Positions 3,729-19,459 of a DNA stretch of 64,000 nt are shown here, one piece after another. The position numbers and the translations under genes were made by a program. The notes under the pieces are model-generated. The model searched no databases. It was not told the origin of the DNA and worked only from the letters and a program-made list of their open reading frames with translations. The DNA lies in assembly GCA_945860545.1 (NCBI GenBank), contig CAMAQM010000005.1, positions 31,447 to 95,446 of the forward strand. The letters run 5' to 3'. This DNA is from Bifidobacterium breve (GTDB lineage: Bacteria > Actinomycetota > Acidimicrobiia > Acidimicrobiales > Acidimicrobilacustridaceae). Numbering within the stretch: position 1 is the first letter of the stretch; each line of letters begins with the position of its first letter.

Positions 3729-5510
3729 CTAGTGCACCGGCTCGGCCGACGACGAACCCTCATCGACGTCACCGAGGACCAGTTGGGCGCCAACGCTCGG
3801 TTCGCCGCCGCTGGGATCGATGATCTCGCCGGTGAACAGGAAGTTCAACGCCTGGATCATGACGCCGGGTTCGGAACTGCCTGCGTCGTGCGGATCGAGC
3901 CCGTGGAGCCCGGGTGTGGGCGGAAGGTTCGTGGTGGGGGGTGCCGGGGTGCCGAAATCCCACACGGATAGCACCGAACGGGTGGTGGGCATGTCGCCCA
4001 CGTCGTCGATGCCCCACATGGGTTCGACATCGCTGGAACGACCGTCACGCAACGCCGGCCGGCGCACCGCGGCACCGATGGTGCGGGCCAGCACCTCGGT
4101 GGAGACGTTGGGGACCTGATGGTCACCGAACGCCTCGATGAGCAGCACCGTCTTGGGGCTGACCCCCGGGTAGGGGTCGGCGGTGAGGTGCTGGACGTAT
4201 CCGGCGTTCTCCCCCCGGTCCCACAGCAACTGGATGAGCTCAAGGGCCACCATGCGGTCTACGGGGTCCGGGTAGGCGCCGTGGAACACGTCTTCGAAGG
4301 CCAACCAGTTCACCGACCGGGGCAGCATCAGGTTGTAGGCGAGTCCCGGCACCCCGAACACGGCCCGCTGCCACTCGTCAGCCACGGCGCTCGCCACCCC
4401 ACCGAGGATGCCGCCCTGACTGTTGCCGACGAACACCGATCCGTCGACGGCCAGTCGGGACGCACCGTCGGGCCCCTGGAACACGGGGTGGGAGGCGAAC
4501 CCGTCGGGCCGGTTGGCGAGACGGGCCAAAAGGATGAACGCCAACTGGGACTGCTGGAGCCGGTCAGGGATGGACACGAAACGTGACAGGTCGCCGAGCA
4601 CATCGGCGACGTTGGGAACGTCCTCGGTACACATGCCCACCCAGTCGGTGCCGCACACGTTGAGGTTGCCCAACGAGCAGATGCCGTCAAGCGTGTACAC
4701 CTCGTCGCGACTCGACAGCAGACCGTGGCCGAACACCAGCGTGCCGCGTGCGGCGGGGTCCGAAGCGAACAGGAACGTGAACGGGGCGCGCCACGTCGGA
4801 TACTCGGGGTTGAGCGTGGGTGTTCCCTCGGCGTCGAGCAGCATGCGTCCGCCGGGGGACCCGTCGTTGTCGAGGTAGTTCGGCACGCTGAACGTGCCCT
4901 GCACCGACACCGGGTCGCCCGAGTCGTCGACGTCGGTGACCTCGAACTCAGGCATGTACCCCTCAGCTGCGGCGACCATTGCCCGCAACCGGCTCGACAA
5001 GGAGGTGCTCGACGCCACCGGGAACGACCACACCAGCGGAAGCTCCATGGGCACCGGTGCACCGGTGGCGGTGACCAACGGGTCGATCTCCACCTGGTAA
5101 CGGTGGCCTTCGGTGAGCGCCTTGGCCGGGTGGATCATCACCAGGTGGTGCCGCTCGGGGTCATAGGAGTTGAGCTCCGCCCAGTACGGCCAACGCTCCC
5201 CGGTGGTGAGGTCGGTGAGGCGCACTGCAACGTCGGCAGCCATCGACGCCCCGATGTTGGTGCTGTCGGGCACGCCGCTGCGGGTGAGATCCACCCCGGG
5301 CACGTGCACGAGGATGCGACTCGCCGGTGAGAAGCCGTCAGCAACGTTCTGCGCCGTGACGTCAATGGGGACCCCCGCCGAGTTGCGGGGGGTGGCCTCA
5401 GCGGGAATGGCGAGGCGCACCCCGGTGGGGGTGGTGGGGTCCGCAACGGTGAACCGCTCGTGGGGCCAGGGCAACAGTCCGCTCGACGGCGTCCAGATCT
5501 CATTTGTCAT
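3729..5510 (-). CDS. Alpha/beta-hydrolase-like protein
   Basis: A 593-residue product from the ATG at 5510 (MTNEIWTPSSG). The longer track start at 5606 would run through the start of the divergent oxidoreductase gene. Residues 1-170 look like beta-rich, Ig-like material. After that come FGHGLLSS (about 260-267), a possible oxyanion-hole region, and VGNSQGG (about 361-367), a nucleophile elbow of the G-x-S-x-G type with Ser364. FGDHQVPN further on could carry the catalytic Asp/His. No signal peptide is seen, which is odd for a protein with Ig-like character. Esterase or lipase activity is inferred from the elbow only. Confidence 0.65.
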   Translation of the reverse strand: MTNEIWTPSSGLLPWPHERFTVADPTTPTGVRLAIPAEATPRNSAGVPIDVTAQNVADGFSPASRILVHVPGVDLTRSGVPDSTNIGASMAADVAVRLTDLTTGERWPYWAELNSYDPERHHLVMIHPAKALTEGHRYQVEIDPLVTATGAPVPMELPLVWSFPVASSTSLSSRLRAMVAAAEGYMPEFEVTDVDDSGDPVSVQGTFSVPNYLDNDGSPGGRMLLDAEGTPTLNPEYPTWRAPFTFLFASDPAARGTLVFGHGLLSSRDEVYTLDGICSLGNLNVCGTDWVGMCTEDVPNVADVLGDLSRFVSIPDRLQQSQLAFILLARLANRPDGFASHPVFQGPDGASRLAVDGSVFVGNSQGGILGGVASAVADEWQRAVFGVPGLAYNLMLPRSVNWLAFEDVFHGAYPDPVDRMVALELIQLLWDRGENAGYVQHLTADPYPGVSPKTVLLIEAFGDHQVPNVSTEVLARTIGAAVRRPALRDGRSSDVEPMWGIDDVGDMPTTRSVLSVWDFGTPAPPTTNLPPTPGLHGLDPHDAGSSEPGVMIQALNFLFTGEIIDPSGGEPSVGAQLVLGDVDEGSSSAEPVH

Positions 5511-5588
5511 TCCGACAATCTCGCACATCTCGGTGACCGCCACCGACACTCCGGGCACCGCAACGACCGCTCCCCTACGCTTTGACCC

Positions 5589-7832
5589 GTGGAGGAGACA
5601 CACCACACGTTCTGTCGCATCTGCGAGTCACTGTGCGGACTTGAGGTCACCGTCGACAACGGGACCGTGACACGAATCCGGCCCGACGAGCACCACGTCG
5701 GCACCGCAGGGTTCGCCTGCATCAAAGGGGTCAAGCAGCACAAGCTGTACGCCTCGCCCGACCGGCTCGAGCACCCGATGCGTCGCGACGGCGAAACGTG
5801 GTCGGCGGTGAGTTGGCCCGAGGCCGAGGCCGACATCGGGCAGCGGGTACGGGCCATCGTCGATCAACACGGCCCCAACGCGGTGGCCATGTACGTCGGG
5901 ACCGCCGCAGGTTTCGGGGTGCTCCACCCGGTGTTCGCCCAAGGGTTCATGGACGGCATCGGGTCGGAATCCATGTTCGCCAGCGCCACCCAGGACTGTT
6001 CGAACAAGTTCGCCGCCGCCCGCGAGATCTACGGGTTCCCGTTCACCCAGCCGTTCCCCGACGTGGACCGCACCAACTGCCTCGTCGTCGTGGGGGCGAA
6101 CCCCGTGGTGTCGAAATGGTCGTTCCTCCAGGTGGCCGACCCCACCAAACGGCTCCGCGAGATCGCCGAACGAGGCGGCCGAGTCATCGTGGTGGACCCC
6201 CGGTTCACCGAAACGGCGCGGGCCGCCACCGACCACGTGTTCATCCGGCCCGACACCGACGTGTTCTTCTACCTGTCGTTCCTCAACGAGGTGCTCGCCA
6301 CGGGGCGCATCGACGAGGCACTGGTGGCGGACCACACCACCGGCATCGACGAGATCACCGAACTGGTGGCACCGTGGACACCGGAGCGCACCGCTGAGGT
6401 CACCGGCATCGAACCCGAGGTGCTGCGCAGCGTGGTCGCTGCCTACCTCGACGCCGACGGGGCGGCGCTCTACTCGTCCACCGGCGTCAACATGGGCTCC
6501 AATGGGGTACTGGCGTACTGGCTGCAAGAGGTCATCAACGCCGTGGCCGGCAACCTCGACCGCAGCGGCGGCACCCTGGTGGGCAAAGGCATTTTCGACT
6601 TCGCCAAGTTCGGCAAACGCACCGGCACACTCATGAGCGACGCCACGTCACGCATCGGCGGGTTCCGCAAGGTCAACGACGCGTTCCCCGGTGGCATCCT
6701 CGCCGATGAGATCCTCACGAACGGCCCCGGTCGCATCCGGGCGCTGTTCGTCACCGGGGGCAACCCGCTCATCACCATGGCCGACGCCGGCCGACTGCGC
6801 GAAGCGTTCGGTCAGCTCGAACTGCTCGTCACCGTCGACATCTACCGCAACGAGACCGGTTCACTGGCGCACTACACCCTGCCCGCCACCGACCCACTCC
6901 AGCGCGACGACCTGCCGTTCATCTTCCCGCTGGTGCTCGGCATGCAGTCAAGGCCCTACCTGCAGGCCACCCGGGCGGTCAGTGCCCCCCGGGGCGAACA
7001 ACGCGACGAGGCCTCGATCTACCTGGCGCTGGGCAAGGCGTGCAATGCGCCCATCTTCGGTTCGAGACGGGCGCAGCGAATGCTTGAGCGCATGGCTGCC
7101 CGCCACGCCCGCCGACACGGTCTCGCCCACCCCACCGTGCCGTCCGAGAAGTTGTTGAACCTGCTTTTGCGGGTCACCCGCCAACCCGGGTTCCGCAAAC
7201 TCCTCGGCCACCCGCACGGCCTCGCCCGTCCGCCGGCCCAACCCGGATCGTTCCTCGGGAAGCGCATCGTCACCGACGACCGCAGGGTGCATCTCGCCCC
7301 ACAGCGCCTCATGTCGGCCGCCGGACGTCTCGACGCGGCGTTCAGCGCCGCCCTCGACCGGGCTGACCGCATGCTCCTCATCACCAAGCGGCACACCAAA
7401 ACCCACAATTCGTGGACCCACAACCACCCCGAGATGGTGGCCAACGGGTTCACCACCAACCACCTCTACCTGCATCCCGCCGACGGGGAACGTCTCGGTC
7501 TCGGCGACGACGACCTCGCCGACGTGACGTCGGCGACCGCAACGGTCAGGGTCCCGGTCCGGCTCCACCACGAACTCATGGAAGGGGTGTGTGCCCTGCC
7601 CCACGGGTGGGGTCACCAGCACGCCACCGGACTGTCGGTGGCGTCGCGCACCACCGGGGTGAACGTGAACCTGCTCGCCGCGTCGGGACCCGACGCCATC
7701 GACCCCGTCTCGGGCATGTCGCACCTCACTGGGATCCCCGTCGACATCGCCCCAGCGACCGGTCCCCTCGACCCCGACTCGTGGTCGGGGATGCCCCCCG
7801 CCGAGACGCCGGTGGGTATCAGCTCACACTGA
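5589..7832 (+). CDS. Molybdopterin-dependent oxidoreductase (DMSO-reductase family), paralogue 1
   Basis: A 747-residue catalytic subunit starting at GTG, with GGAGGAG immediately inside the start. N-terminal cysteines C9, C12, C16 and C44 (C-x2-C-x3-C...C) bind a [4Fe-4S] cluster. Cys137 in the run ATQDCSNK sits where formate dehydrogenases and nitrate reductases carry the Mo ligand. The C-terminal domain has the molybdopterin-dinucleotide-binding stretch KTHNSWTHN and LPHGWGHQ. There is no Tat signal, so it is cytoplasmic, and no partner electron-transfer subunit is adjacent. A paralogue lies at 49804. The substrate is unknown; formate-dehydrogenase-like or a generic actinobacterial oxidoreductase are both possible. 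Confidence 0.85.
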   Translation: MEETHHTFCRICESLCGLEVTVDNGTVTRIRPDEHHVGTAGFACIKGVKQHKLYASPDRLEHPMRRDGETWSAVSWPEAEADIGQRVRAIVDQHGPNAVAMYVGTAAGFGVLHPVFAQGFMDGIGSESMFASATQDCSNKFAAAREIYGFPFTQPFPDVDRTNCLVVVGANPVVSKWSFLQVADPTKRLREIAERGGRVIVVDPRFTETARAATDHVFIRPDTDVFFYLSFLNEVLATGRIDEALVADHTTGIDEITELVAPWTPERTAEVTGIEPEVLRSVVAAYLDADGAALYSSTGVNMGSNGVLAYWLQEVINAVAGNLDRSGGTLVGKGIFDFAKFGKRTGTLMSDATSRIGGFRKVNDAFPGGILADEILTNGPGRIRALFVTGGNPLITMADAGRLREAFGQLELLVTVDIYRNETGSLAHYTLPATDPLQRDDLPFIFPLVLGMQSRPYLQATRAVSAPRGEQRDEASIYLALGKACNAPIFGSRRAQRMLERMAARHARRHGLAHPTVPSEKLLNLLLRVTRQPGFRKLLGHPHGLARPPAQPGSFLGKRIVTDDRRVHLAPQRLMSAAGRLDAAFSAALDRADRMLLITKRHTKTHNSWTHNHPEMVANGFTTNHLYLHPADGERLGLGDDDLADVTSATATVRVPVRLHHELMEGVCALPHGWGHQHATGLSVASRTTGVNVNLLAASGPDAIDPVSGMSHLTGIPVDIAPATGPLDPDSWSGMPPAETPVGISSH

Positions 7833-12993: not shown

Positions 12994-13004
12994 CCAATAC
13001 CCCG

Positions 13005-13048
13005 TGCGATGCGGCCCCGCTGGCACATGCCGGCGGGGCCGCATCGCA
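13005..13048. terminator. Strong 16-bp inverted repeat, probable bidirectional terminator
   Basis: TGCGATGCGGCCCCGC is matched perfectly by its reverse complement at 13033-13048, with a 12-base loop. It sits between the convergent PCu(A)C gene and the giant surface-protein gene. There is no U-run, as is common in high-GC actinobacteria. Confidence 0.8.
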
Positions 13049-13113
13049 CAATCAGGCCGCTCGGTCCCCTGACCATGTCGGTATCCACACGGCCTGAGCG
13101 CGTTGCGATCCTG

Positions 13114-16100
13114 CTACGCGGGGGCGCCCCGACGGCGCGCCGACCACAGGAGAACCACCCCGAGGCCTACGAGTCCCACAGCAAGCCACGCTGGACCGAA
13201 TCCTCCGAGGCCGGTTGCCGGCAGACCCCCCGCACCCGGCTCGTAGCGGTTGGTCACCACCACCCGGGTGGGTCCACTCACCGTGAACGCATCCGGTGTC
13301 TGACCACCGCTGACGACAATCTGTGTCGATACTGCGCCTCGTGCGTCGGGCTCAGTGACCGAACAGGTTGCCCCGACCGGAACCGCCACCTGAACCGACG
13401 CTCCAGCGGAGATCTCGAGGCGGGAGGAAGGATCGCCGGTCATGGCGAAGGGGGCACCACTACCCGAGAGGTTCAGGCGTGACGAGCCGACGGCGCAGTC
13501 GAGATTGATCACGAACGATCCACCGGGCCCGACGCCGTCGAGTTCCTTGGCGACCTCAACCACGGCGAGAGGGAACTCGTTGGTGGCCACCACGTCGACA
13601 GCCGGTTGGTCGACGGCGGGGATGGTTACGGTGCCCACCGCACGGGGCACGTCACCGTCCGCCGAACCGTCGTTGACCTCGGTCACGGTGCACACGGCAC
13701 CGACCGGGATCGGGTTCACGTACCCCACCAGTTGGTCGACGTCGAGCACCAACTCGGGGTACCCGGGCAGGTCATAGCCTGCCAGCGTGCACGTCGTGGC
13801 GAACCTGAACGGTCCTGTCGCCCAACGCACCCCGTCGCCAGCGAGCACCTTGGTGACCCGGATACCGGACTCGTCGGCGCCGGCCCGGCTGCCGCCGGGT
13901 TCGTAGGTGTTCGTGGCGGTGATCGTCACGTCCTGGTCCATAGCGTCGATGGTGACCTTGGCGTTCACCGTGGCGCTCACCGCCACCTCGGTGGCACCCA
14001 CCGTGTCGGTCTCCGTCGCCCAGCACCGCGACCCGAGCGGAACCGTGTCGTCGATGAGCGTCGACTCACCACCGGCGAGCACGACGGTCTCATCGATGAA
14101 CACCTGCGTCCCGTCACCGTTGACGAGGTCTCGTTCGCACTGGACCCGAAGAGTGAAAAGGGCGCCAGCCATTGGTGCCGCTGCGGATCCGTTGAGCACT
14201 TTGGCCACGCTGATCGATCCGGCCGGGTAGTCGTTGGTCACGGTGACCTCAACGGGTCCGGGCGGTTCCGGGTCGTAACTGGGAATGACGAACGATCCCG
14301 CCGGGGAGACGGTGGAGCCTGCGGCGTCGCCGGGGTTGGGCTCGGTGACCGTGCAGAGGTAGCCGGCGGGGATCGGGCTGACCGTGCCGGTCAGGTCGTC
14401 GGGCCACAGGGTGAGCTCTTCGATCACGGGATCGAGCCCACCGAGCGGGTCGGTGCACGCCACCCGAACGAGGTATGGGCCTTGAGCCCACTGTGATGCT
14501 GCCCCGTCGAGTTCCTTGGTGACCAGCACCCCACCGGTGGTGTACGTGTTGGTCACCTCAACCTCAGTGCCAGGAAGGGCCTGGGGGTTGTTGGGGTCGA
14601 ACTCGTCGACGAGCACCGTGACGGTCGTTCCCTCCTCGGTTGGAGCGTTGGAGGGGGCCATGGTCACCTCCATGGCCTCGCGGGTCTCGGTCTCGGTCAC
14701 GTCACAGGTGGTTCCCACCGGCAGGTCACCGATGGTGGCCGACTCGCCGTCGTTGAGTGCCAGCTGTTGGGGGAACCCGGGCAACAGGTCCGACGGCCCG
14801 GGGAACGCACAACTCACATCGAAAAGGTACGGCCCGGGAATCGGCACCGGCTGCACGTCGTCCCACACGACCGCCTTGGACACGGTGAGCGCTCCGGTGT
14901 CGAACTCGTTGATCACCGCCACGGGTGCGGGGTCGTTGGCGTTGATACCGACGACTGCAGCGCTCTCCTCGCCCGCCATGTTCGACTGCCCGCCCTGGGA
15001 GTTCGTCTCCCACACCCGACACGTCGCGGCATCAGGCACCAACGGACCGGTGTAGCTGCCGCCGTCGACGAGGGTGAACGTCCCTGACGCCACCTCGGTC
15101 ACCACCTCGTCGGGGGTGGTGACCTCACAGATGTAGGCCATCTGGAATGGCTCAAGCGGCACTCCCGGGGGGAGTCCTTCGACGGTCTTGTTGGCGACGA
15201 AGGTCCCCAGTGGCATCCCCACGCCGACCTTGAGTGGTTCGGTGGCGGGGAGCACCGTGGTCTGGCCGCCGGGCAGACGGAAACTTGGACGGTAGGCGAA
15301 CGAGTTCCACGCCACAGGCTCACCCAGCGACGACGTGAGGTCGATCGGCGCCCGCATCGACCACACCAGTGAGAACGACTCACCGGGGTCCAACAGGTCG
15401 TTGGCGGGGAACGACATGGTGGTCCGGAACCCGGTGACGCTCGCCCCGAACGGGGCGTTGAACGCCGACGGCGGGCACGTATCCGCCGGCGGTCGGGCCA
15501 GGTTCGCCGTGCAGAAGGCCGAACTGGGGAAACCGGCGGTGGTGTAGCCGGTGGTCACGCCCGGGTAGTCCTCAACGTTGGTGACTCCGCTGAGCATGGT
15601 GGGGCGCTGGTTCCATTGGGTGCCGCGGGCCTGTCCCGACAACAACACCCCGACGTCACCCTGCACCGGGAGTCCATCGACGAGGACGATCTCCGTTGCG
15701 GGGTTGGTGCCGCTGTTCACGCCACGGATCAGGTAGTCGATGGTGCCCCCGGCGGGGACCCGGGCCGTGCACGGGTAACGGGTGTAGACCCGGTCGTCGT
15801 TGACGTAGCGCGGGCAGCTCGGATCGTCGGGGGACACGATCTGGCCTGCAGCGTTGCGCAACCCGAGACCAGGATCGGCGGCAATCCACTTCTCGGCGAT
15901 GAAGTCGTCGCCCGCCAGCGTCGTCACCGTGGTCGCCCCGGTGCAGAACCGGCCCTGGCCGTAGAGGGCATTGTTCACCACCGACGTTCCTGCGCAACCA
16001 AGGTCGGGATCGGAACCGCTGGCGCCGGCGGTGTTGGTCAGGACCTCACCGGCGAGCACCCCAGGGGTCAGCACCACGTTGAACTGCAGTTCGATGCGAC

Positions 16101-19100
16101 CGCCGGGAGGCAAGCTCCAGTTCGGGAACGACCACGACAGACGGCACACCCGGTTCACGTCGGTGCAGCCCGGCACCGGCGGGGACACCGGACTGCCGAC
16201 CTCGGGAGTGAACACCACCGATGACGGTGGGTTCACCCCGGCGGGCAGCACGTAGTTGATCAGGTAGGGCGCGCCCGGGCTGCCCCCGGTGATAGTGGGG
16301 TCGAAGGTCAGCCCGGCGGGGAGTGGATCGACGACGACAGGGTTGGTGACGTTGTCGGTACCGGTGTTGGTGGTGACCAAACTGATGGGTGCGACGTCGC
16401 CGGGACCGATGCGGCTCTCGGGGCCCTTCGACAGCGACAGCGTCGGGGTGCCCTCGGTGACGGTCACGGTGGCTGACGCCGGCGGAATGGCGAACGTCGT
16501 GCCAGAAGGCTGCAACTGGGATTCACCAGCGGCGTCGGAAGTGTTGAGCAAACTCGCCGGGATCGGGGAAGCGGGGTTTGAAGCCAATGTCTGGCGAACC
16601 TTGACACGGAAACACACCGTGGCGTTCGGGCATCCGCCACTCGTCGGGTAGTTCGGTGACGGCAACAACTCGTACCCGTTGTTCGAGTTGGTGAACGTGA
16701 ATCGCAGACCCTTCACTGATGCGGGCAGCACGCCTGACGGCAGGCCTGGGGTGGCCGAGGCGGTGCGGGTGCCGACCACCCAGATCCCGTTGGTGCAGTT
16801 CGCCACCGACGTGCAGGCATCCACCTGCACCCTGTTGGCTCCGACAGGGAAATTCACCCGGATCTGCCCGGAGTAGTCGACAGCGTCGAAGAAGTCCGTG
16901 TCGACGTCGGTGACCACGAGACGCTTGAGGTTCAGGGTGCCCGTGTTGGTGACCCGGTGACGCACGTCCATGATCTGGTCGGCGAGGCCCGGTTTGGGTC
17001 GGACGACCGTGGACGGCACCAGGCTCTTGTTGAACGACCCACCCGAACTCGGAGGGGCCGCCGAGATGGTCGGACCACAGAAGGTCTGTGATGGGGTGTC
17101 GATCCCGACCGCAGCACAGTTTCGGAACGTGGCGGACGGGGACACACCGTCACGGAGACGCACGGAGTACGCCACCCGGAACGTGTCCCCCACCCCGAGG
17201 TTGCCGGTGACACGAACCCGGATCCCGGTGGCTCGGGCCAGGAGCGCCGTGTCGGTGCCGACGTAGGGCACGTAGTCAGCGACCGTGGGGTCGTAGACCT
17301 CGAGATCGCTGGCCGGTGAGGCCGTCACGGCACGCAGGCTGGTGAGTCGCACCACCCCGAACGGGTTGGCTGACGCCGACGGGTCCGGCGGGTCGACGAG
17401 CACCACGTTGGTCACCGGCACGTTGCCCGAGTTGCGGAACGAAAGATTGAAGGTCAGGTCCTGGCCGGGGGTCATGGTTGTGACCCCGTTGGTCGACTTC
17501 GTGCCACTGCCCACCGCAGGGTTCGGAGCGACCACGGCCACCGACGCACAGGCGTCGCTGGTGGCCGACCCGGTGCCGTCCACCTCGGACGACAGCGTCA
17601 CCTCGGCACAGTTGGTCAGTCCCCCATCGGTGACATCCGCCATCGCCGCACCCGGGGCGGTGCCGTGCAACTCGAGGATGCCCGCAGCCCCCGGCGCGAT
17701 GACGGCGGTCTGCCCACCGGACACGCCGGTGAACGTGACGCTGACCGATGCGGCGGCCACCCCGGCGGTACAACCGAGGTCAGCCAGGTTCACGAGGTCG
17801 CCGGACGCCGGGCGGGCAAGGATCTGCGGTGCGGGATCGGCACCGCTGCGGCAGTCCACGGCCACCTCGGCTGAGGTCGCCCCCGCCGGGAAGGTGATGC
17901 GACCCCGGGTGACATCGACCTTGGCGAAGTCGGTCACGGCGCTCGGGCTCGGTTCGCGCAGTCGCATCACCGAAACCGGGAACGCCGAGTCGTTGGTGGC
18001 GGTTATCCGCATCGACACCCCGGAGTCCTGCCCCGCAACCACATTCCCGTCGGCGCGGTAATCGCCGTTGCTGTCAGCGAAGAACGCCTTGTTCGCCGTG
18101 ACCCGAACGTCACCGGGCTGAATGGCGTAGGTGGCACACACGTCGGTGCCCGCCGTGCTCGCCCCACCAACGGCCCGCACCGAAGGGGCAGCGCAGTTCG
18201 TCACCAGCTCGGTGGTGGTGGGTTCGAGCGGCGCTCCGCTGGTCCGATAGGTGGAGCGCAGCACGACGGGGACCCGCACGGCCGACGGCGTGGGGCTGTA
18301 GGGAAGCAGCGCCCCCCCGCTGTCAGTGAACCGGTAGCGGATACCGGTCACGTCGGCGGCGGCGACCCCACCGGGCAACACCAACGCCGGTCCGGCCTGC
18401 GCAAGGGATGCCACCCAGTCCGAGTCGGTGCACGCAGTTCCCACGGGAAGCTGACACGTCTCAACCACGACCCGGTTGGCACCATCGGGGAAGCTGTCCA
18501 CGACCCCGACACCCGTGAGATCGAACCGTTCGAATGTTGCTGCCGTCGTGTCGGCAACTCTGACCTCGTTCACCGGGGACGAACTCGTAGACGTGTTGCG
18601 CACTCCGAGAATGATCTCGCTCGGTGCCGCCGACCCGGCCAGGCCACTGTCGGGCGACCACGACTTGGTGGCCACCGCGTCGTAACGGACCGGGATGACG
18701 GCGGTGACGTCCGCTGTGTCCTGCGCCGGTTCGGCGAGATCGGCGGTGGCGGTTGCCGTGTTGGTGATGACCTGGCCGTCGATGACCGCCGTCTCCGACG
18801 GGAGGCGCATCCCGATGGCGATGGCCTGTGACGACCCGGCGGGGAGACCCACCTGTCCGCCTCCGAGGGGCACCACGAAGGTCACGCGCAACAGCCGGGT
18901 TGCCGGGTTCCAATCCACGGTCCTCTGACTGTTCGAGGTGGGTAGCGACGTCACGTCGAATTCAGCGGGCAGGACATCCTCGACGACGAGGTTGGCGCAC
19001 GGCACCTCAAGTGATGAACACGACACGACCACACGGAATTCGGTCTCCTGGCCGGGAGCGAGAGTGTCGGGGCTGGCCTGCTTGTCGAGACCCACCACCG

Positions 19101-19257
19101 CCGTGCCGTTCGCTGGCGCAACCGTGACCTCGCTGGTTGACGTCGGGTCGTCGGTGGACGCCGCCACCGTCGGCACGGTTGGAAGACCGAGCAGAAGCGT
19201 GGCCACCACCACGAGAGCGGCGGCGAATGATGCGCTACGTCGACGAGGAGCGAGCAT
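13114..19257 (-). CDS. Giant LPXTG-anchored surface protein with DUF11 and DUF5979-type repeats
   Basis: About 2,047 residues from ATG 19257; a GTG five codons upstream is the alternative. A signal peptide (MLAPRRRSASFAAALVVVATLLLGLP) is followed by about 1,300 residues of conserved-repeat, DUF11-like beta domains (NTGTLNLKRLVVTDVD, FRNSGNVPVTNVVLVDPP). Six DUF5979-like repeats then begin near residues 1350, 1459, 1579, 1682, 1799 and 1899 (for example VLVTKELDG, IRVTKVLAGDG), each ending in a CxVTE motif. The C terminus is LPATG, a membrane helix and SARRRG, a sortase sorting signal. It is probably covalently attached to the cell wall as a stalk or adhesin. No sortase gene is in the window. 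Confidence 0.88.
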   Translation of the reverse strand: MLAPRRRSASFAAALVVVATLLLGLPTVPTVAASTDDPTSTSEVTVAPANGTAVVGLDKQASPDTLAPGQETEFRVVVSCSSLEVPCANLVVEDVLPAEFDVTSLPTSNSQRTVDWNPATRLLRVTFVVPLGGGQVGLPAGSSQAIAIGMRLPSETAVIDGQVITNTATATADLAEPAQDTADVTAVIPVRYDAVATKSWSPDSGLAGSAAPSEIILGVRNTSTSSSPVNEVRVADTTAATFERFDLTGVGVVDSFPDGANRVVVETCQLPVGTACTDSDWVASLAQAGPALVLPGGVAAADVTGIRYRFTDSGGALLPYSPTPSAVRVPVVLRSTYRTSGAPLEPTTTELVTNCAAPSVRAVGGASTAGTDVCATYAIQPGDVRVTANKAFFADSNGDYRADGNVVAGQDSGVSMRITATNDSAFPVSVMRLREPSPSAVTDFAKVDVTRGRITFPAGATSAEVAVDCRSGADPAPQILARPASGDLVNLADLGCTAGVAAASVSVTFTGVSGGQTAVIAPGAAGILELHGTAPGAAMADVTDGGLTNCAEVTLSSEVDGTGSATSDACASVAVVAPNPAVGSGTKSTNGVTTMTPGQDLTFNLSFRNSGNVPVTNVVLVDPPDPSASANPFGVVRLTSLRAVTASPASDLEVYDPTVADYVPYVGTDTALLARATGIRVRVTGNLGVGDTFRVAYSVRLRDGVSPSATFRNCAAVGIDTPSQTFCGPTISAAPPSSGGSFNKSLVPSTVVRPKPGLADQIMDVRHRVTNTGTLNLKRLVVTDVDTDFFDAVDYSGQIRVNFPVGANRVQVDACTSVANCTNGIWVVGTRTASATPGLPSGVLPASVKGLRFTFTNSNNGYELLPSPNYPTSGGCPNATVCFRVKVRQTLASNPASPIPASLLNTSDAAGESQLQPSGTTFAIPPASATVTVTEGTPTLSLSKGPESRIGPGDVAPISLVTTNTGTDNVTNPVVVDPLPAGLTFDPTITGGSPGAPYLINYVLPAGVNPPSSVVFTPEVGSPVSPPVPGCTDVNRVCRLSWSFPNWSLPPGGRIELQFNVVLTPGVLAGEVLTNTAGASGSDPDLGCAGTSVVNNALYGQGRFCTGATTVTTLAGDDFIAEKWIAADPGLGLRNAAGQIVSPDDPSCPRYVNDDRVYTRYPCTARVPAGGTIDYLIRGVNSGTNPATEIVLVDGLPVQGDVGVLLSGQARGTQWNQRPTMLSGVTNVEDYPGVTTGYTTAGFPSSAFCTANLARPPADTCPPSAFNAPFGASVTGFRTTMSFPANDLLDPGESFSLVWSMRAPIDLTSSLGEPVAWNSFAYRPSFRLPGGQTTVLPATEPLKVGVGMPLGTFVANKTVEGLPPGVPLEPFQMAYICEVTTPDEVVTEVASGTFTLVDGGSYTGPLVPDAATCRVWETNSQGGQSNMAGEESAAVVGINANDPAPVAVINEFDTGALTVSKAVVWDDVQPVPIPGPYLFDVSCAFPGPSDLLPGFPQQLALNDGESATIGDLPVGTTCDVTETETREAMEVTMAPSNAPTEEGTTVTVLVDEFDPNNPQALPGTEVEVTNTYTTGGVLVTKELDGAASQWAQGPYLVRVACTDPLGGLDPVIEELTLWPDDLTGTVSPIPAGYLCTVTEPNPGDAAGSTVSPAGSFVIPSYDPEPPGPVEVTVTNDYPAGSISVAKVLNGSAAAPMAGALFTLRVQCERDLVNGDGTQVFIDETVVLAGGESTLIDDTVPLGSRCWATETDTVGATEVAVSATVNAKVTIDAMDQDVTITATNTYEPGGSRAGADESGIRVTKVLAGDGVRWATGPFRFATTCTLAGYDLPGYPELVLDVDQLVGYVNPIPVGAVCTVTEVNDGSADGDVPRAVGTVTIPAVDQPAVDVVATNEFPLAVVEVAKELDGVGPGGSFVINLDCAVGSSRLNLSGSGAPFAMTGDPSSRLEISAGASVQVAVPVGATCSVTEPDARGAVSTQIVVSGGQTPDAFTVSGPTRVVVTNRYEPGAGGLPATGLGGFGPAWLAVGLVGLGVVLLWSARRRGAPA

Positions 19258-19353
19258 GTCGTAAACCTTCACGTCAGCGGGAGACCGCTGCTGAACATGC
19301 GGACTCGGGGACCGCCAGAGTGTAGGTGGCGGCCCCCGTTGGCGCGAAGCGAG

Positions 19354-19397
19354 GTGGGCCAGGGTGGGATCGAACCACCGACCGAGCGATCATGAGT
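19354..19397. repeat. attL-like direct repeat: displaced 3' half of tRNA(CAU)
   Basis: These 44 bases repeat 20656-20699 with one mismatch (C at 19391 against T at 20693). They correspond to the T arm, variable region and anticodon side of the intact tRNA gene, on the same strand. After base 19397 similarity ends and no D arm or 5' acceptor exists, so it is not a tRNA gene. A displaced tRNA 3' end separated from the intact gene by foreign sequence is the usual footprint of tyrosine-recombinase integration. Confidence 0.8.
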
Positions 19398-19459
19398 GCC
19401 GCAAACCCTGTCCGCCCAGTCCATCAGGTGCGGAATCATGCAGTTGTGTGCGGTTCGAC

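What the first reader, a model, noticed from the sequence alone, without database searches (positions are those of the whole stretch)
13114..19257. Two-thousand-residue LPATG-anchored repeat protein
A single gene of 6.1 kb encodes a wall-anchored stalk with DUF11-like domains and six DUF5979-like repeats. LPXTG proteins of this size are uncommon outside pathogens and oral actinomycetes and suggest surface attachment or floc formation.
Basis: partly seen in the sequence, partly recalled or inferred. Interest (0 to 1): 0.5.

Follow-up and report, generated by a model that had tools for sequence, protein, structure and literature searches.

The report
Sortase-anchored isopeptide-locked surface stalk protein
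This gene encodes a long bead-on-a-string surface protein that a free-living Acidimicrobiales bacterium very probably bolts to its cell wall and stiffens with built-in chemical cross-links; it is a real and well-conserved example of a known kind of bacterial surface fibre, with many and often larger cousins in the same order.

Summary
One intact minus-strand ORF, 13114-19257, encodes 2047 aa: signal peptide, seven DUF11-like (CnaA-like) domains, six DUF5979 domains, then LPATG, hydrophobic stretch and RRR tail. It is under purifying selection (dN/dS about 0.15 against a 79% identical orthologue). A 56% identical homologue has seven DUF5979 copies, so copy number varies. Most likely function: a wall-anchored stalk whose domains are each locked covalently. 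In 26 aligned DUF5979 repeats the only invariant residues are Lys, Cys, Cys, Glu and Asn; in 281 repeats from 19 further proteins they are 97.5-100% conserved. Lys/Glu/Asn is the CnaB intramolecular isopeptide triad, and DUF5979 is a published isopeptide family (PMC12617251). The Cys pair implies a second lock. AlphaFold2 (pLDDT 95) and Foldseek place a repeat beside pilin CnaB domains. The claim of rarity outside pathogens is not supported: 28 of 298 Acidimicrobiales genomes have DUF5979 proteins, with open frames up to about 3800 aa. Ligand, adhesion and floc formation are untested, and no head domain was found. New member of a known kind.

The parts
13114..19257 (-). Whole gene, 2047-aa sortase-anchored stalk protein (13-domain chain)
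19159..19257 (-). Signal peptide region (residues 1-33): RRR then hydrophobic core, AXA-like end
   Evidence: Sequence; mean hydropathy 1.85 over residues 8-33
18688..19104 (-). D1, DUF11 domain (K59, D94, N166; Cys 80/87)
   Evidence: Pfam DUF11 E 8.4e-6; residues conserved in homologues
18112..18687 (-). D2, inferred CnaA-like domain (K198, D236, N354; 4 Cys)
   Evidence: No significant Pfam hit; candidate K/D/N pattern and spacing; AF2 failed
17521..18111 (-). D3, inferred domain (K390, E435 in place of Asp, N549; 4 Cys)
   Evidence: No Pfam hit; conserved in three proteins; AF2 failed
17050..17520 (-). D4, DUF7927/DUF7507-like domain (K587, D622, N713; Cys 714/727)
   Evidence: Pfam DUF7927 34.3 bits, above its cut-off
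16450..17049 (-). D5, DUF11-like domain (K744, D784, N at about 905 replaced by D in both homologues; 4 Cys)
15913..16449 (-). D6, DUF11-like domain (K944, D977, N1075; 4 Cys)
   Evidence: Pfam DUF11 E 5.9e-5, 23.8 bits against cut-off 24.6
15211..15912 (-). D7, DUF11/DUF7619-like domain (K1123, D1194, N1318; 4 Cys), the longest domain (234 aa)
   Evidence: Weak Pfam hits; conserved in homologues
14899..15210 (-). R1, DUF5979 repeat (K1357, E1417, N1450; Cys 1377/1413)
14536..14898 (-). R2, DUF5979 repeat (K1461, E1522, N1570; Cys 1483/1518)
14221..14538 (-). R3, DUF5979 repeat (K1581, E1639, N1675; Cys 1601/1635); AF2 model pLDDT 95.1
13897..14223 (-). R4, DUF5979 repeat (K1686, E1749, N1783; Cys 1707/1745)
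13570..13872 (-). R5, DUF5979 repeat (K1803, E1860, N1893; Cys 1823/1856)
13237..13569 (-). R6, DUF5979 repeat (K1904, E1969, N2003; Cys 1921/1965)
13210..13224 (-). LPATG sorting pentapeptide
   Evidence: Sequence
13117..13209 (-). Hydrophobic stretch and RRR tail that complete the sorting signal
   Evidence: Sequence; hydropathy 1.72 over residues 2017-2040
13004..13049 (.). 22-bp inverted repeat (95%, 2-nt loop) between the convergent stalk and PCuAC genes, probably a two-way terminator (no T-run)
   Evidence: not flagged by the terminator scan

Best explanation
The gene encodes a secreted surface stalk. After export, each domain folds. In the six DUF5979 (CnaB-like) domains, and in most of the seven DUF11-like (CnaA-like) domains, a Lys near the domain start forms an autocatalytic isopeptide bond to an Asn near its end, helped by a Glu (CnaB) or Asp (CnaA). 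A conserved Cys pair in each DUF5979 domain adds a disulfide between strands. A class E-like housekeeping sortase then cleaves LPATG and links the C-terminus to the wall, leaving a chain of 13 locked domains (roughly 50-60 nm if fully extended, an estimate) pointing outward. Shown by computation: gene, domains, residue conservation, fold of one repeat, sorting signal and the presence of a sortase. Inferred: bond formation, anchoring by this sortase, and a role in attachment or aggregation.
For: Domain hits. Lys, Cys, Cys, Glu and Asn are the only invariant columns in 26 DUF5979 repeats from five proteins, whose identity to R3 is mostly 19-42%. In 281 repeats from 19 further proteins: K 99.3%, Cys 97.5% and 100%, Glu 97.9%, Asn 100% of the 208 that reach it; the next best columns are Phe/Tyr and Pro/Gly of the core. 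DUF5979 is listed as a CnaB-like isopeptide family with PDB 4BUG as example (Lys610/Glu680/Asn715), and DUF11 as a crystallographically proven one (PMC12617251). Profile search of the PDB hits pilin and Cpa CnaB domains (5u5o 3.7e-7, 4bug 2.7e-4), with K, E and N aligned to K, E and N in 8f70. AF2 model of R3 has pLDDT 95.1, with Lys in the first strand and Asn in the last; Foldseek best hits are PitA 7vcr and Cpa 4bug. All 36 Cys and all 13 domain-start Lys are kept in homologues at 79% and 56% identity. Each of the 13 domains holds an even number of Cys, a pattern met in 39 of 200,000 random scatters. Sortase L001 has GHR, LMGC and QRIVV motifs.
Against: No bond was observed, and no coordinates were available to measure the Lys-Asn distance. 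The AF2 model of D2-D3 failed (pLDDT 44), so the fold of those domains is not shown. D3 has Glu where Asp is expected, and D5's Asn is Asp in both homologues. The sortase falls just under the NCBIfam class E cut-off (151.6 against 160 bits), and class E enzymes usually prefer LAXTG. No VKOR or Thioredoxin_4 oxidase was found in this 89.6% complete genome, although two DsbA-family hits were.
Confidence: 0.83

Rival explanations
1. It is a fibrillar adhesin in the strict sense: one of the unplaced N-terminal domains (D1-D3, or D7) is the ligand-binding head and the rest is stalk, giving attachment to particles or neighbouring cells.
For: The domain order (signal peptide, varied N-terminal domains, repeated stalk, sorting signal) matches fibrillar adhesins as described in PMC12617251. 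D2 and D3 match no Pfam family.
Against: No known adhesive domain was found. The N-terminal domains are among the better conserved parts (70-93% identity per 100 residues over 101-1300, against 60-78% over 1501-2000), whereas binding heads often diverge faster.
Confidence: 0.35
2. It is a sortase-polymerised pilin or pilus tip protein.
For: Its CnaB domains are most like those of Gram-positive pilins.
Against: No class C pilus sortase: only two sortase-family genes were found, both scoring best as class E-like, and one lacks its Cys. The gene stands alone, flanked by a tRNA gene and genes unrelated to pili. A 2047-aa subunit would be very large.
Confidence: 0.05
3. The C-terminus is simply a membrane anchor, and the protein stays in the membrane or is shed without sortase.
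For: The hydrophobic stretch with RRR tail could serve as a membrane anchor. The homologue L024 has LSFTG in place of LPATG, and sortase substrate choice is untested.
Against: An active-looking sortase is present here and in 38 of 41 relatives. Other genes in the genome end in LPSTG or LPATG plus hydrophobic stretch plus Arg-rich tail (L009, L010). Related giants end in LAxTG or LAFSG type signals.
Confidence: 0.12

Closest known systems
DUF5979 (PF19407), CnaB-like isopeptide domain family; structural example Cpa/Spy0125 of Streptococcus pyogenes, PDB 4BUG
   Same: Profile match far above cut-off, same Lys/Glu/Asn triad, same fold class
   Different: Here a conserved Cys pair between strands is invariant as well; arrays of 6-7 repeats (up to 31 in cousins) in a free-living actinobacterium
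DUF11/CLIPPER (PF01345) and CLIPPER_2 (DUF7507), CnaA-like isopeptide domains
   Same: D1 and D6 match DUF11 and D4 matches DUF7927/DUF7507; candidate K/D/N residues
   Different: D2, D3, D5 and D7 are at or below detection; D3 has Glu for Asp
Fibrillar adhesins with isopeptide stalks (PMC12617251)
   Same: Long, signal peptide, tandem isopeptide domains, LPXTG-type anchor
   Different: No recognised adhesive head; ligand unknown
Class E sortase, e.g. SrtE1 of Streptomyces coelicolor (PDB 5cuw, PMC5148588)
   Same: Best NCBIfam class is E; H/C/R present; stands alone and is order-wide, as a housekeeping enzyme
   Different: Scores 151.6 against the 160-bit cut-off; substrates here carry LPxTG rather than LAXTG, although the paper says SrtE1 can take Ala or Pro

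Membership tests
DUF5979 (PF19407) | Profile score above the curated cut-off | tested here: met
   224 bits over the protein against cut-off 25; six copies of 41.8-60.3 bits each
DUF5979 (PF19407) | Lys/Glu/Asn isopeptide triad (as in 4BUG) | tested here: met
   Invariant in all six repeats and in 26 repeats of five proteins; 97.9-100% in 281 repeats
CnaB-like intramolecular isopeptide domain | Transthyretin/CnaB beta-sandwich with Lys on first and Asn on last strand | tested here: met
   AF2 pLDDT 95.1; Foldseek to PitA and Cpa, prob 1.00, E about 1e-3
CnaB-like intramolecular isopeptide domain | Covalent Lys-Asn bond | not testable with these tools
   Needs mass spectrometry or a crystal structure
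DUF11/CLIPPER | Profile match above cut-off with K/D/N | tested here: inconclusive
   D1 26.5 bits (cut-off 24.6); D6 23.8 bits just below; others lower
Sortase-anchored (LPXTG) wall protein | Signal peptide, LPXTG, hydrophobic stretch, positive tail | tested here: met
Sortase-anchored (LPXTG) wall protein | Sortase with intact His/Cys/Arg in the same genome | tested here: met
   L001, G000:C17:8329-9252
Sortase-anchored (LPXTG) wall protein | Covalent attachment to the wall | not testable with these tools
   Needs fractionation and a sortase mutant
Class E sortase (L001) | NCBIfam NF033747 score at least 160 | tested here: not met
   151.6 bits, best of all classes; hence called class E-like
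Fibrillar adhesin | Repeated stalk domains with surface anchor | tested here: met
Fibrillar adhesin | Adhesive (ligand-binding) domain | tested here: inconclusive
   None found by Pfam; D2-D3 model failed
Sortase-assembled pilin | Class C pilus sortase, usually next to the pilin | tested here: not met
   Only two sortase-family genes, both nearest class E, neither near the gene

The most novel reading that the evidence does not exclude
In this order, DUF5979 repeats form a doubly locked domain (isopeptide plus disulfide), strung in arrays of up to about 31 in open frames of up to about 3800 aa by free-living bacteria: a common but undescribed class of environmental surface fibre with an adhesive or colony-holding role.
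Probability: 0.4. Interest if true: 0.4.

Novelty: new member of a known kind. Interest (0 to 1): 0.27.

Why it matters
It gives a well-conserved, testable isopeptide stalk from an uncultured free-living actinobacterial lineage, and shows that such stalks, often larger than this one, recur in the order. The Lys/Cys/Cys/Glu/Asn pattern over hundreds of repeats predicts a doubly cross-linked domain that might be useful as a mechanically or thermally stable scaffold. It does not change current understanding of these proteins.

Tried and rejected
Direct DNA repeats in the gene: only weak pairs of about 30 nt, so the domains are old duplications, not recent copies. Pairwise-repeat alignment for AF2 went out of register and was replaced by single repeats. 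AF2 of D2-D3 with three sequences gave no usable model. phmmer of the whole protein against the PDB: no hit. No relatives found in viral contigs or plasmids. No sigma-70-like promoter found. Literature on Acidimicrobiia with sortase, or Acidimicrobiales with fibrillar adhesin: none held. Pilin reading rejected for lack of a class C sortase.

Full report
The ORF is real. It runs on the minus strand from 19257 (ATG; a GTG at 19272 would add five residues) to 13114 and encodes 2047 residues. The nearest orthologue, in a same-genus genome (G002; its contig has the same length, 22,443 bases, as JALRFT010000203.1, titled Acidimicrobiales bacterium isolate LJ.14), is 79% identical over the whole length with only single-residue internal gaps and dN/dS of about 0.15. 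A third protein, L024 from an uncultured actinobacterium MAG, is 56% identical. Matches at E 1e-10 or better were found in only 4 of 61 relatives including itself, and not in the other same-genus genome, so the gene is patchy.

Anatomy. Residues 1-33 form a signal peptide; 52-1349 form seven domains of DUF11 or related type; 1350-2009 hold six DUF5979 domains; 2012-2016 are LPATG, followed by a hydrophobic stretch and RRR. D1, D4 and D6 are supported by Pfam (D6 just under the cut-off); D2 and D3 are not recognised; D5 and D7 only weakly. Thirteen of the protein's 20 lysines lie at domain starts, and all 13 are kept in both homologues, as are all 36 cysteines. Every domain holds an even number of cysteines, which random scattering gave in 39 of 200,000 trials.

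Mechanism. In 26 DUF5979 repeats from five proteins the only invariant columns are Lys, Cys, Cys, Glu and Asn. A profile built from these found 281 repeats in 19 further protein frames of the order (one of them overlapping a protein already in the profile), with Lys 99.3%, Cys 97.5%, Cys 100%, Glu 97.9% and Asn 100% of the 208 that reach it. The profile search selects for conserved residues, so these figures are somewhat inflated. The Lys/Glu/Asn set is the known isopeptide triad of CnaB domains, and the literature lists DUF5979 as such a family with PDB 4BUG (PMC12617251). A profile search of the PDB returned pilin and Cpa domains with these residues in register. The AlphaFold2 model of R3 (pLDDT 95.1) has Lys in the first strand, Glu four residues after the second Cys in one strand, and Asn in the last strand; Foldseek returned streptococcal PitA and Cpa. 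The isopeptide bond is thus strongly predicted but not shown. The conserved Cys pair predicts a disulfide; the genome has two DsbA-family matches but no VKOR or Thioredoxin_4 match, so how disulfides are made is open.

Anchoring. The genome has two sortase-family genes. L001 keeps His, Cys and Arg, scores best as class E (151.6 bits against a 160 cut-off) and has matches in 38 of 41 relatives. Class E sortases usually prefer LAXTG, but SrtE1 is reported to accept Ala or Pro at that position (PMC5148588), and a Bifidobacterium class E enzyme presumably takes [L/I/V][S/A/P]XTG (PMC8603203). Other genes of this genome also carry LPxTG-type ends. No class C pilus sortase was found, so a pilin is unlikely.

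Context. Of 298 genomes sampled from the order, 28 (21 of 172 genera) have DUF5979 matches, in open frames up to 3804 aa; one 3732-aa frame holds 31 repeats and ends in an LAFSG signal. Repeat number does vary between homologues: 6, 6 and 7.

Function. A rigid, wall-linked stalk for attachment or cell-cell contact is the usual role of such proteins, but no binding head was recognised, the D2-D3 model failed, and nothing computed here tests adhesion or flocs. That the organism is free-living is inferred from its relatives' record titles (lake-type MAGs) and not shown.

Noticed in passing
L002:1126-2121 (G000:C12:30270-31262) and homologues L034-L043, L050, L053, L058: A sortase-fold paralogue next to a PstS-like gene has Ser in place of the catalytic Cys (LVTS). 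Homologues across several Acidimicrobiales families mostly have Ser, Ala or another residue there, and several also lose the active-site His: a retained Cys-less sortase family, possibly non-catalytic or re-purposed.
   Followed up: partly
L083-L092 (e.g. L084, 3732-aa open frame; L083, 3804-aa open frame): Giant DUF5979 proteins with 18-31 recognised repeats, mostly ending in LAFTG/LAFSG/LALTG-type signals, in several other Acidimicrobiales families.
   Followed up: partly
window 19353-19431 and L025 425-1627: The stalk gene starts just downstream of tRNA-Arg here, but in the same-genus genome G002 it follows tRNA-Met and tRNA-Thr, while G002's tRNA-Arg region lies on another contig; the downstream acyl-CoA synthetase/YceI block stays linked. 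Possibly a tRNA-bounded rearrangement.
   Followed up: partly
window 10.9-13.1 kb: The DUF1775 (YcnI-like) and PCu(A)C copper chaperone gene pair lies between the stalk gene and the YceI gene here, but is missing from that place in G002.
   Followed up: no
L022 (G042:C1:4763878-4769949), near 4695-6072: An open frame with a vWA-like MIDAS motif lies just downstream of a 2341-aa DUF5979 protein ending in LPPTG, a possible adhesin partner.
   Followed up: no
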